Below, one piece after another: positions 10,763 to 40,602 of a stretch of DNA of 64,000 bases. Origin of the DNA: Amphiura filiformis. Its lineage: Eukaryota; Echinodermata; Ophiuroidea; Amphilepidida; Amphiuridae. Location of the stretch: assembly GCF_039555335.1 (NCBI RefSeq), contig NW_027305505.1, forward strand, positions 146,501 to 210,500. Direction: 5' to 3'. The position numbers and the translations under genes were made by a program. The notes below the pieces were generated by a model. That model searched no databases. It worked only from the letters and a program-made list of their open reading frames with translations, and was not told where the DNA came from. Within the stretch, counting starts at the first letter, position 1. Each line of letters opens with the position of its first letter.

Positions 10763-10832
10763 GACTCGGGAGCTATTGCAATGTCTGACAGGATAGGTAC
10801 TGGAATGTTATCTGCATCACTCGACCATCCTA
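10763..10832 (-). pseudogene. CXC-family gene fragment interrupted by the array
   Basis: The minus strand encodes GWSSDADNIPVPILSDIAIAPES, matching the + strand copy at 50937-51005 almost exactly. At 10762 the homology switches from the gene to the inverted end, whereas the + copy continues for another 1.1 kb including its CXC domain. This copy has therefore lost its zinc-binding end. Its N-terminal neighbour resumes at 40603-40755, on the other side of the 29.8-kb array. Confidence 0.8.
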
Positions 10833-11652
10833 CAATCAAGTGCAAATTTGCTGGGACACTTTCATAGTTCAATGACCCTCCCCGCACCCCTTATTCAATG
10901 TTGTATACCAAACGCCTCATTTTGTAAATGGCCTATATTTTTGCTCCTACTTTGGTTGGTGGGGGGGAGGGGATTCGAAATAGGTTGGAAACTATACAAA
11001 TAAAATGTCACATGGTGAACTTCATATGACCGGTTTTATTGAACAGAGGGCGCGAAATATGAACAAGTGTCCCAGGGAAATTTGCACTTGATTGTAAAAA
11101 AAAAAAAAAAAAATAATCTATTACTTTCAGTAAAATTACCATAACTCGCAAACGCGTTGCTCGATTGACATGATTTTTTCACTAATTTAAAACAAATAAC
11201 ATTGCGCATATTTTGGTTACTTTAATTGTCATTTTTTTTCAAACTAAATATTTTTAGGTATCAAAACGCTGTAATATATGCATTATTTAAGGCATATTTG
11301 ACACATGATTGCTATTATAAGCGAATTATCTCAAAATTCACTTTTAAAACAATTTAAAACTAATCAAAATTAAATCATATTGGAAATATAGAGTACAATC
11401 AGTTAAAAATACCTACTGAAATAAAAAAAAAAAAATCATAAAACAAAACAATTGTTTCCCTTTAGTTCATTGATAAATGTAAATGTAAATTGGCAACATA
11501 AAGGAAAAAGAAAGAAAGAAAGAAAGAAAGAAAGAAAAAGAAAGAAAAAGAAAGAAAGAAAGAAAGAAAGAAAGAAAGAAAGAAAGAAAGAAAGAAAGAA
11601 AGAAAGAAAGAAAGAAAGAAAGAAAAGAATAAAAAAGAAAGAAAGAAAAATA

Positions 11653-11737
11653 GCATTACATGGATTCGAACTCGAGATCTCGGGGCGAGAAGCAAAGCCA
11701 GTAACTATATGCCACCGGGAGACTGATGACAATTGCA
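11653..11737 (-). mobile_element. tRNA-like SINE head next to AAAG tract (representative, unit 1)
   Basis: On the minus strand, TGGCATATAGTTACTGG resembles an A box and GAGTTCGAATCC is a good B box. They are followed directly by the CTTT microsatellite, as in SINEs whose tails expand into simple repeats. The same module occurs in all 16 units. Confidence 0.6.
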
Positions 11738-11944
11738 CTCGATTTCAGCGTATTTAATCCTATCGTTGCAATGCTACTGTATTGTGTTATCGAGCTTCGA
11801 TCCAATGAAATCATTCATTAAAACTCATGTTTTGGTCGTATTCAGCATTTATCTAACGTATATTTTGAATATACACGGTCACATTATACATACCTTCCTA
11901 ACTTTGATATGTTTATTGGTAATTATTCCTCCATACAAATGAGC

Positions 11945-12009
11945 ACGGTCTACCATAACGTTAAATAAATATATATTACTTTTTAAGTTATATTATTCTG
12001 GTAGACCGT
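11945..12009. repeat. Short hairpin in the spacer (representative, unit 1)
   Basis: ACGGTCTACC and GGTAGACCGT form 10-bp arms around an AT-rich centre of about 45 bases. It is repeated in every unit with minor loop changes (for example units 6 and 10). It may be a tiny MITE that was in the spacer before amplification. Confidence 0.7.
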
Positions 12010-36553: not shown

Positions 36554-38443
36554 CAATCAAGTGCAAATTTGCTGGGACACTTTCATAGTTCAATGGACCT
36601 CCCCGCACCCCTTATTCAATGTTGTATACCAAACGCCTCATTTTGTAAATGGCCTATATTTTTGCTCCAACATTGGTTGGTGGGGAGGGAGGATTCGAAA
36701 TAGGTTGGAAACTATACAAATAAAATGTCACATGGTGAACTTCATATGACCGGTTTTATTGAACAGAGGGCGCGAAATATGAACAAGTGTCCCAGGGAAA
36801 TTTGCACTTGATTGTATTGAAAAAGACAAAAAATAATCTAGTACTTTCAGTAAAATTACCATAACTCGCAAACGCGTTGCTCGATTGACATGATTTTTTC
36901 ACTAATTTAAAACAAATAACATTGCGCATATTTTGGTTACTTTAATTGTCATTTCTTGTCAAACTAAATATTTTTAGGTATCAAAACGCTGTAATATATG
37001 CATTATTTAAGGCATATTTGACACATGATTGCTATTATAAGCGAATTATCTCAAAATTCACTTTTAAAACAATTTAAAACTAATCAAAATTAAATCATAT
37101 TGGAAATATAGAGTACAATCAGTTAAAAATACCTACTGAAATAAAAAAAAAATCATAAAACAAAACAATTGTTTCCCTTTAGTTCATTGATAAATGTAAA
37201 TGTAAATTGGCAACATAAAGGAAAAAAAAGAAAGAAAGAAAGAAAGAAAGAAAGAAAGAAAAAGAAAGAAAAAAAGAAAGAAAGAAAGAAAGAAAGAAAG
37301 AAAGAAAGAAAGAAAGAAAGAAAGAAAGAAAGAAAGAAAGAAAGAAAGAAAGACAAAAGAATAAAAAAGAAAGAAAGAAAAATAGCATTACATGGATTCG
37401 AACTCGAGATCTCCGGGTCGAGAAGCAAAGCCAGTAACTATATGCCACCGGGAGACTGATGACAATTGCACTCGATTTCAGCGTATTTAATCCTATCGTT
37501 GCAATGCTACTGTATTGTGTTATCGAGCTTCGATCCAATGAAATCATTCATTAAAACTCATGTTTTGGTCGTATTCAGCATTTATCTAACGTATATTTTG
37601 AATATACACGGTCACATTATACATACCTTCCTAACTTTGATATGTTTATTGGTAATTATTCCTCCATACAAATGAGCACGGTCTACCATAACGTTAAATA
37701 AATATATATTACTTTTTAAGTTATATTATTCTGGTAGACCGTTATTGCGTCATTAATTCTTGTTATCCTTGTTATAAATAAATTCGCATGAATAACAACA
37801 GCTCAACCATAGTGTAGTGGTTTGCTTACTGCCTTCTGATCATGAGGGCTACGGTTCGAAGCTCATTGTCGCCGATATGTTTACTTTTAAATCCTGCTCT
37901 TTATCTCTTTTTTAATTTTTGAATACCAATAATAAGCACATTTAAAATGTGTAATTGTATATAATTGTATATACACTTTTTGGCATGGCATTGTTACGTT
38001 GAATTAGCGTGTCTGTGATGGGTAGTTGAAGGCCTATATTAAAGAGTTTAACGTGCATTCCGATAATAGCATTTGAAATAGGGTAATGAGTTTGAAAGAT
38101 CAATGATGAGACAAACATCATGATTCTGTTCTATTTATTTCTATATTTTCTTAATTTCTTATTTGGTTTGCTTTTATTATGTTTGTAAATTCTACCAAAG
38201 GAGAATTTATATGTCCACTCTAATATAAGCAATCAATGTGTCAAATATTCCTTGAAAAATGCATGCATTGCAGGGTTAGATATTCAAAAAATGTTTATTT
38301 TAATAATTTTTTAAAATTGGCTAATCATGTAATGCATAATGAAATTATCTTGACATCACTGAAAAATTATGAAAATCGAGCAACGCGTTCGAGAGTTATG
38401 GCGATTTTATTGATATTAATAGATTATTTTTCGCATCCCTATA
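36554..38443 (+). repeat. Array unit 15
   Basis: The MITE is 36554-36814 (AATGGACCTCCCC). The AAAG tract is 37222-37382. The tRNA-like head has CTCCGGGTCGAG near 37412. Confidence 0.93.
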
Positions 38444-40336
38444 CAATCAAGTGCAAATTTGCTGGGACACTTTCATAGTTCAATGACCCTCCCCGCACCC
38501 CTTATTCAATGTTGTATACCAAACGCCTCATTTTGTAAATGGCCTATATTTTTGCTCCAACATTGGTTGGTGGGGGAGGGAGGGGATTCGAAATAGGTTG
38601 GAAACTATACAAATAAAATGTCACATGGTGAACTTCATATGACCGGTTTTATTGAACAGAGGGCGCGAAATATGAACAAGTGTCCCAGGAAATTTGCACT
38701 TGATTGTATTGAAAAGACAAAAAATAATCTAGTACTTTCAGTAAAATTACCATAACTCGCAAACGCGTTGCTCGATTGACATGATTTTTTCACTAATTTA
38801 AAACAAATAACATTGCGCATATTTTGGTTACTTTAATTGTCATTTTTGTCAAACTAAATATTTTTAGGTATCAAAACGCTGCAATATATGCATTATTTAA
38901 GGCATATTTGACACATGATTGCTATTATAAGCGAATTATCTCAAAATTCACTTTTAAAACAATTTAAAACTAATCAAAATTAAATCATATTGGAAATATA
39001 GAGTACAATCAGTTAAAAATACCTACTGAAATAAAAAAAAATCATAAAACAAAACAATTGTTTCCTTTAGTTCATTGATAAATGTAAATGTAAATTGGCA
39101 ACATAAAGGAAAAAAGAAAGAAAGAAAGAAAGAAAGAAAGAAAAGAAAGAAAAAGAAAGAAAGAAAGAAAGAAAGAAAAGAAAGAAAGAAAGAAAGAAAG
39201 AAAGAAAGAAAGAAAGAAAGAAAGAAAGAAAGAAAGAAAGACAAAAGAATAAAAAAGAAAGAAAGAAACATAGCATTACATGGATTCGAACTCGAGATCT
39301 CGGGGCGAGAAGCAAAGCCAGTAACTATATGCCACCGGGAGACTGATGACAATTGCACTCGATTTCAGCGTATTTAATCCTATCATTGCAATGCTACTGT
39401 ATTGTGTTATCGAGCTTCGATCCAATGAAATCATTCATTAAAACTCATGTTTTGGTCGTATTCAGCATTTATCTAACGTATATTTTGAATATACACGGTC
39501 ACATTATACATACCTTCCTAACTTTGATATGTTTATTGGTAATTATTCCTCCATACAAATGAGCACGGTCTACCATAACGTTAAATAAATATATATTACT
39601 TTTTAAGTTATATTATTCTGGTAGACCGTTATTGCGTCATTAATTCTTGTTATCCTTGTTATAAATAAATTCGCATGAATAACAACAGCTCAACCATAGT
39701 GTAGTGGTTTGCTTACTGCCTTCTGATCATGAGGGCTACGGTTCGAAGCTCATTGTCGCCGATATGTTTACTTTTAAATCCTGCTCTTTATCTCTTTTTT
39801 TTAATTTTTGAATACCAATAATAAGCACATTTAAAATGTGTAATTGTATATAATTGTATATACACTTTTTGGCATGGCATTGTTACGTTGAATTAGCGTG
39901 TCTGTGATGGGTAGTTGAAGGCCTATATTAAAGAGTTTAACGTGCATTCCGATAATAGCATTTGAAATAGGGTAATGAGTTTGAAAGATCAATGATGAGA
40001 CAAACATCATGATTCTGTTCTATTTATTTCTATATTTTCTTAATTTCTTATTTGGTTTGCTTTTATTATGTTTGTAAATTCTACCAAAGGAGAATTTATA
40101 TGTCCACTCTAATATAAGCAATCAATGTGTCAAATATTCCTTGAAAAATGCATGCATTGCAGGGTTAGATATTCAAAAAAATGTTTATTTTAATAATTTT
40201 TTAAAATTGGCTAATCATGTAATGCATAATGAAATTATCTTGACATCACTGAAAAAATTATGAAAATCGAGCAACGCGTTCGAGAGTTATGGCGATTTTA
40301 TTGATATTAATAGATTATTTTTTCGCATCCCCTATA
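38444..40336 (+). repeat. Array unit 16
   Basis: The MITE is 38444-38706 (CCCAGGAAATT). The AAAG tract 39110-39270 has an internal AAAAG phase break and ends GAAACATAGC. It shares CCTATCATTGCAATG with unit 10. Confidence 0.93.
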
Positions 40337-40600
40337 CAATCAAGTGCAAATTTGCTGGGACACTTTCATAGTTCAATGACCCTCCCCGCACCCCTTATTC
40401 AATGTTGTATACCAAACGCCTCATTTTGTAAATGGCCTATATTTTTGCTCCAACATTGGTTGGTGGGGGAGGGAGGGGATTCGAAATAGGTTGGAAACTA
40501 TACAAATAAAATGTCACATGGTGAACTTCATATGACCGGTTTTATTGAACAGAGGGCGCGAAATATGAACAAGTGTCCCAGGGAAATTTGCACTTGATTG
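40337..40600 (+). mobile_element. Terminal MITE closing the array
   Basis: The 264-bp element has ends CAATCAAGTGCAAATTT and AAATTTGCACTTGATTG, flanked by TA on both sides. Its right TA (40601-40602) joins directly to the CXC-family gene relic, without any spacer sequence. This mirrors the left end of the array. Confidence 0.93.
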
Positions 40601-40602
40601 TA

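What the first reader, a model, noticed from the sequence alone, without database searches (positions are those of the whole stretch)
10831..40602. A 29.8-kb satellite-like array occupies exactly one TA target site
The array begins and ends with complete MITE copies flanked by TA. The outer flanks (10763-10830 and 40603-40755) are contiguous in an uninterrupted paralogue at 50783-51005, where only one TA (50935-50936) stands. So the whole 30 kb is delimited like a single transposon insertion with a 2-bp duplication. Either a MITE-array-MITE block moved as one macro-transposon, or a single MITE landed first and the array was imported by recombination between MITE copies. Neither route is commonly described for satellite DNA.
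Basis: partly seen in the sequence, partly recalled or inferred. Interest (0 to 1): 0.88.

Follow-up and report, generated by a model that had tools for sequence, protein, structure and literature searches.

The report
Satellite array bounded by mini-transposons
A 30-kb tandem DNA array in an unidentified, probably animal, genome starts and ends with copies of a tiny cut-and-paste transposon and sits in one TA target site; scars inside it suggest the transposon has been active there, so tandem repeats may spread by borrowing transposon ends.

Summary
Outer flanks 10762-10832 and 40601-40757 are contiguous in an uninterrupted paralogue (50782-51005, minus strand) with a single TA. The array has 16 direct spacers of 1,605-1,646 bp and 14 MITEs, one at each end. 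So this looks like a Tc1/mariner-type MITE that was excised at least once after entering the repeat unit.

Units are nearly identical (median 2 differences from consensus in 1,223 clean positions), so the array is young or homogenised. My preferred route is that a short MITE-spacer-MITE seed entered the TA by transposition and was amplified in place; a jump of the full 30 kb is not needed. A circle recombining into a resident solo MITE fits almost as well and cannot be excluded. No genome, second site or reads were available, and every literature call failed. I rate it a new variant of a known kind (satellite/transposon hybrids), of moderately high interest.

The parts
10831..10832 (.). left TA of the target-site duplication
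10833..11094 (+). first (left terminal) MITE copy; three differences from the MITE consensus, at alignment columns 118, 121 and 140; none in columns 1-117 or from 143 on
11095..12714 (+). spacer S01 (starts TA-AAAAAA instead of TA-TTGAA)
12713..12720 (.). MITE-less boundary S01/S02 with scar TACATGTA
12719..14346 (+). spacer S02, most diverged unit (11 substitutions in 1,223 clean positions)
14347..14607 (+). MITE copy with decayed left TIR and CA in place of the left TA
14608..16212 (+). spacer S03
16213..16472 (+). MITE copy
16473..18106 (+). spacer S04
18107..18364 (+). MITE copy, first of five successive MITE copies sharing a derived haplotype
18365..20010 (+). spacer S05
20011..20273 (+). 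MITE copy, derived haplotype
20274..21914 (+). spacer S06
21913..21920 (.). MITE-less boundary S06/S07 with scar TACATGTA
21919..23555 (+). spacer S07 (shares A252G with S10 only)
23556..23815 (+). MITE copy, derived haplotype
23816..25459 (+). spacer S08
25460..25720 (+). MITE copy, derived haplotype
25721..27354 (+). spacer S09
27353..27360 (.). MITE-less boundary S09/S10 with scar TACATGTA
27359..28996 (+). spacer S10
28997..29257 (+). MITE copy, derived haplotype
29258..30888 (+). spacer S11
30889..31150 (+). MITE copy
31151..32776 (+). spacer S12
32777..33035 (+). MITE copy
33036..34669 (+). spacer S13
34670..34933 (+). MITE copy
34934..36553 (+). spacer S14; no substitution against the consensus outside the masked tracts; its ends are inverted repeats of each other (unit positions 14-217 and 1403-1607, 73.9%)
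36554..36814 (+). MITE copy
36815..38443 (+). spacer S15
38444..38706 (+). MITE copy
38707..40336 (+). spacer S16
40337..40600 (+). last (right terminal) MITE copy
40601..40602 (.). right TA of the target-site duplication
10762..10830 (+). left outer flank contiguous with the right flank in the paralogue
40603..40757 (+). right outer flank
50782..51005 (-). uninterrupted paralogue with a single TA at 50935-50936 (empty-site proxy)

Best explanation
The array is a young (or strongly homogenised) tandem amplification of a 1.9-kb unit made of a 1.6-kb spacer plus a 264-bp Tc1/mariner-type MITE. The MITE had earlier jumped into a TA at the centre of an imperfect palindrome in the spacer sequence (inferred from TA...TA flanks and spacer ends that are inverted repeats). 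A short block with a MITE at each end (one or a few spacers) then entered the TA at this locus by transposition, with the left TIR of its first MITE and the right TIR of its last MITE used as the two transposon ends. Shown: the single-TA delimitation and the intact outer TIRs. Inferred: the composite transposition and the seed's size. The seed was then amplified in place to 16 spacers. Shown: near-identity, one shared orientation, and a run of five successive MITE copies with one haplotype. Inferred: the mechanism of amplification. While or after that happened, Tc1-type transposase cut out single MITEs and left TACATGTA scars at three boundaries. Shown: the scars at the exact MITE position. 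Inferred: the enzyme. Two of the scars may be copies of one event.
For: Single-TA empty-site paralogue. Outermost TIRs and TAs intact. Scars: MITE-bearing boundaries read TA[CA...TG]TA (14 copies, one with CA for the left TA), while the 3 MITE-less ones read TA-CA-TG-TA in the matching context CCCCTA...TTGAAG (single copies vary by a C or by A-run changes). An insertion into a pre-existing TACATGTA would leave CATG on one side of the MITE; none of the 14 copies, 12 of which have spacer on both sides, shows that. Terminal MITEs have 0 differences from the array MITE consensus in columns 1-117 and 143-268, so neither looks like an unrelated resident copy. Spacers differ from consensus by 0-5 substitutions (15 of 16 units) or 11 (S02) in 1,223 clean positions. 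Five successive MITE copies share a derived haplotype, chance of contiguity 0.005 (tested after being noticed). A 2.1-kb seed is within ordinary Tc1/mariner size (recalled).
Against: No second site, donor locus or allele was available, so composite transposition itself is not observed. The terminal-MITE test is weak if the whole MITE family is equally young; the two private substitutions of the first MITE (columns 118, 121) would also fit a resident copy plus a crossover to their right. Spacer similarity does not fall with distance (Mantel r 0.10 and 0.11, p 0.23 and 0.21), so stepwise exchange between neighbours is not supported by the spacers; they look star-like. TACATGTA is common here anyway: 8 occurrences (two of them overlapping, and one apparently the paralogous counterpart of another) in the 34 kb outside the array against about 1 expected, so the octamer alone is not diagnostic; only its exact position is.
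Confidence: 0.42

Rival explanations
1. A solo MITE inserted first at this TA (leaving the 2-bp duplication). A circle carrying spacer+MITE units, or a sister array, then recombined with it by one homologous crossover, giving MITE-(spacer-MITE)n with MITEs at both ends automatically; the array may have grown further afterwards.
For: One crossover gives exactly this anatomy with no large transposition step (reasoning). Star-like spacers fit a circle copied by rolling replication. The two private substitutions of the first MITE outside the G run (columns 118, 121) sit on the side that could come from the resident copy.
Against: Columns 1-117 and 143-268 of both terminal MITEs are identical to the array consensus, so the resident must have been nearly identical to the array's MITE. 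No other MITE copy was found in the 34 kb of window outside the array, so landing pads are not dense here.
Confidence: 0.33
2. The full 29.8-kb MITE-array-MITE block moved in one step as a macro-transposon.
For: Ends and TA duplication are those of one insertion.
Against: Tc1/mariner elements lose efficiency with length (recalled). Not needed, since a short seed explains the same ends. No donor copy could be looked for.
Confidence: 0.12
3. The MITE-less boundaries are the ancestral state, not excision scars, and TACATGTA was present before the MITE.
For: TACATGTA is over-represented in the window (11 against 1.26 expected, 3 of the 11 being these boundaries).
Against: Insertion at any TA of TACATGTA would leave CATG beside the MITE; none of 14 MITE copies shows it. 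CA and TG are exactly the MITE's terminal bases.
Confidence: 0.05
4. The boundaries or unit number are products of genome assembly.
For: Near-identical units are prone to collapse (general knowledge); small clustered differences beside homopolymers could be consensus errors.
Against: Both flank-MITE junctions are precise and agree with the paralogue; units carry distinct variants and mostly distinct AAAG tract lengths (offset 146-192 between two landmarks).
Confidence: 0.06

Closest known systems
Tc1/mariner-type MITEs and the C. elegans Tc1 excision scar TACATGTA (recalled)
   Same: TA duplication, terminal inverted repeats ending CA...TG, the same 8-bp scar
   Different: Here the MITE sits at 14 of 17 spacer boundaries of a tandem array and bounds the array
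Satellites built from transposable elements: Tetris in Drosophila virilis, a MITE-driven satellite in Xenopus, hobo tandem arrays of McGurk and Barbash (all recalled, none read here)
   Same: A DNA transposon is part of the tandem unit
   Different: Here the array as a whole keeps transposon ends and one target-site duplication, with the empty site visible in a paralogue
Helitron/Helentron elements that carry short satellite-like arrays in bivalves (recalled, not read here)
   Same: A mobile element delimits and can disperse tandem repeats
   Different: Cut-and-paste MITE ends, a 30-kb array, and the repeat unit itself contains the transposon
Maize Ac/Ds and Drosophila P-element macrotransposons or composite elements (recalled)
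   Same: Two element copies can act as the ends of one larger mobile block
   Different: Cargo that is not a tandem array of the end element, and other transposon families (hAT, P)

Membership tests
Tc1/mariner-type MITE | TA target-site duplication | tested here: met
   Array level: single TA in the paralogue. Copy level: right TA 14 of 14, left TA 13 of 14
Tc1/mariner-type MITE | terminal inverted repeats, short, no transposase gene | tested here: met
   258-264 bp copies; TIR pair of the 34670 copy aligned over 41 columns at 87.8%; too short to encode a transposase
Tc1/mariner-type MITE | scar of two terminal bases from each end between two TAs after excision | tested here: met
   TA-CA-TG-TA at 3 of 17 boundaries; the defining scar is recalled, and the octamer is enriched in the window anyway
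Tc1/mariner-type MITE | autonomous partner with a DDE/D transposase and the same ends | not testable with these tools
   no genome held; the 26-bp TIR end gave 0 matches in prokaryote genome contigs
Satellite DNA | head-to-tail, near-identical monomers | tested here: met
   16 spacers, same orientation, 0-11 substitutions from consensus in 1,223 positions
Satellite DNA | abundant, long arrays at many loci | not testable with these tools
   only one array seen; no genome
Macro-transposon / composite transposon | element copies at both ends and one target-site duplication around the whole | tested here: met
Macro-transposon / composite transposon | the block found at, or excised from, another site as a unit | not testable with these tools
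   no whole genome or individuals available

The most novel reading that the evidence does not exclude
A self-dispersing satellite: because most monomers carry a mobilisable Tc1-type MITE, any run of monomers between two MITEs is itself a transposon, so satellite blocks can jump to a TA, regrow in place and shed single MITEs again; this locus is one such jump.
Probability: 0.35. Interest if true: 0.78.

Novelty: new variant of a known kind. Interest (0 to 1): 0.58.

Why it matters
How a satellite appears at a new chromosomal place is, as far as I know, an open question. Here the entry point is defined to the base, the empty site is known from a paralogue, and scars suggest that the ends are usable. 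That makes composite transposition, circle recombination and in-place growth distinguishable by genotyping one TA site and comparing copies across one genome.

Tried and rejected
A conserved target motif shared by the locus and the spacer: 14 of 24 matches with the wrong TA aligned (3 of 2,376 TA sites outside the array reach 14), but only 6 of 24 in the true insertion register, so rejected as coincidence.

A higher-order repeat in the array: the long self-match 10831-21916 / 25458-36555 reflects a similar order of MITE-bearing and MITE-less boundaries. The spacers show no distance effect. Only the MITE haplotype run and a few shared variants such as that of S07/S10 show local copying.

An edge effect (older outer units): S02 is the most diverged unit, but S01 (3) and S16 (2) are ordinary under strict masking; not claimed. 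The high private count of S12 (28) lies mostly in the AAAG tract.

An RNA gene as the repeat's purpose: Rfam at gathering score gives 0 hits in the window, and the permissive scan of 34600-36900 gives 6 matches, all below gathering score. ARAGORN finds 0 at default and 0 in unit S14 at -ps95, -ps90 and -ps85, then 2 at -ps80. Only one of these two lies on a tRNA-like patch that I had picked by eye.

The viral-contig 17-mer hits: 10 loci, none continuing into the MITE TIR, so taken as chance.

No paper was seen; every named precedent is recalled. I make no claim that this is absent from print.
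Full report
What was checked. The window is 64,000 bases with no N. No whole genome is held for it, so the organism is not identified; that it is an animal is my guess from non-LTR reverse transcriptase ORFs nearby and the repeat content, and was not tested. The flanks of the array, joined without the array-side TAs, align to the reverse complement of the proposed paralogue as one hit, 213 of 226 identities, and the only gap at the join is the paralogue's TA. The homologous stretch is 71 bp at 100% on the left and 157 bp at 93% on the right. 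As a control, 5 of 1,000 random 100+100-bp joins of non-array positions have a match spanning the join, at 85-90% identity, four of them in or at the edge of the minisatellite at 45-46.6 kb; the observed join matches at 97.7% over 171 bp. The evidence comes from one paralogue, not from an empty allele.

Anatomy. There are 14 MITE copies of 258-264 bp, all in one orientation, with TIRs alignable over 41 columns at 87.8% in the copy tested. The right TA is present in 14 of 14 and the left TA in 13 of 14; the copy at 14347 has CA and two changes in the 17-bp tip of its left TIR. There are 16 spacers of 1,605-1,646 bp, all direct. The two ends of the spacer are inverted repeats of each other: BLAST gives positions 14-217 against 1403-1607 at 73.9%, E 5e-18, in unit S14, and a looser alignment outward from the MITE-less boundary at 12713 runs to about 350-375 bp. 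So the MITE sits at the centre of an imperfect palindrome. Each spacer has an (AAAG)n tract (16 tracts). No MITE or spacer copy was found in the rest of the window with one copy of each as query.

Excision scars. Three of 17 boundaries have no MITE (12713, 21913, 27353). MITE-bearing boundaries read, in the usual form, CCCCTA-TA[CAATC...GATTG]TA-TTGAAG, with small variation (one C fewer, A-run changes; the first spacer starts TA-AAAAAA). MITE-less ones read CCCCTA-TA-CA-TG-TA-TTGAAG. The alternative, that TACATGTA was there first, would leave CATG beside the MITE after insertion; none of the 14 copies (12 with spacer on both sides) shows this. A caution: TACATGTA is common in the window at large, 11 in all against 1.26 expected from dinucleotide shuffles. 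Outside the array it occurs 8 times against a second-order Markov mean of 1.06, 0 of 200 simulations reaching 7 (the simulation counted non-overlapping matches, of which the real sequence has 7). The octamer alone is thus weak evidence; its place is the evidence. The enrichment itself might reflect many old Tc1-type excisions or an unrelated sequence bias; I did not test this. How many excisions? S07 and S10, which follow the scars at 21913 and 27353, share a variant (A252G) that no other of the 16 spacers has, so these two scars may be copies of one event; the scar at 12713 is followed by S02, which lacks it. I read this as one to three events.

Age and growth. With homopolymer surroundings and the AAAG tract masked (1,223 positions), units differ from the consensus by 0, 0, 0, 1, 1, 2, 2, 2, 2, 2, 3, 3, 4, 5, 5 and 11 substitutions. 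The array is young or strongly homogenised. Spacer distance does not grow with spacing (Mantel r 0.10 and 0.11, p 0.23 and 0.21), so a burst from one template, or thorough scrambling, fits better than stepwise exchange between neighbours. Against that, five successive MITE copies (18107, 20011, 23556, 25460, 28997, with two MITE-less boundaries between them) share a derived haplotype, probability of contiguity 0.005 (noticed first and tested afterwards).

How it got there. The ends demand that MITE sequence, not spacer, met the flanks on both sides. Three routes give this: (a) a short MITE-spacer-MITE seed transposed and grew in place; (b) a solo MITE landed and a circle or sister array recombined into it; (c) the full 29.8 kb moved at once. 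Both terminal MITEs equal the array's MITE consensus in columns 1-117 and 143-268, which slightly disfavours an unrelated resident copy, but not if the MITE family is itself young. The first MITE's private changes at columns 118 and 121 could be read either way. I put (a) at 0.42, (b) at 0.33 and (c) at 0.12.

What is known. From memory only: satellites derived from DNA transposons, tandem arrays carried by Helitrons, hobo tandem arrays and macrotransposons of maize and Drosophila are all described. All my paper searches and look-ups failed, so I cannot say whether a satellite array bounded by MITEs in a single TA is already in print. I class it as a new variant of a known kind. What seems unusual is the combination of a monomer-resident MITE, whole-array transposon ends with an empty-site paralogue, and excision scars inside the array.

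Noticed in passing
window outside the array: 10588, 42462, 46999, 49766, 52289, 52295, 57282, 58903: TACATGTA is about seven- to eight-fold over-represented in the 34 kb outside the array (8, or 7 without overlap, against about 1). It is the commonest palindromic filler between two TAs there (8; next is TATA with 4). Possibly a genome-wide trace of Tc1-type excisions, or a sequence bias.
   Followed up: partly
35489-35570 (minus), about 35906-35985 (plus) and 36184-36258 (plus) in unit S14: tRNA-like patches in the spacer. By eye: one near 35499 (minus strand) and one at 35918 (plus strand) with A-box/B-box-like strings; TAGTGTAGTGG, GGTTCGAAGC and GGATTCGAAC occur once in each of the 16 spacers. 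ARAGORN at -ps80 supports the first (35489-35570) but not the second, and adds another at 36184-36258; nothing at stricter settings and no Rfam tRNA hit. Possibly old SINE or tRNA remnants.
   Followed up: partly
50782-51100 and the array flanks: One plus-strand frame of the paralogue stays open across the insertion site and ends in a cysteine-rich stretch, so the array may interrupt a degenerate copy of a repeated coding sequence; the family was not identified.
   Followed up: no
45040-46571: A 27-bp minisatellite with about 57 copies, open in several frames, one of which encodes a highly acidic repeat of 433 aa.
   Followed up: no
1195-2003: An approximately 0.8-kb self-palindrome at 75% identity.
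   Followed up: no
42427-43022 and 47205-47613: Related 151-bp tandem repeats in opposite orientation on both sides of the acidic minisatellite.
   Followed up: no
40747-41640, 48115-49230, 59500-61069: Fragments of non-LTR retrotransposon ORFs: endonuclease-like (Pfam score below its cut-off) and reverse transcriptase domains; 4 of 8 ORF pieces scanned had a Pfam match. That they are non-LTR is my reading.
   Followed up: no
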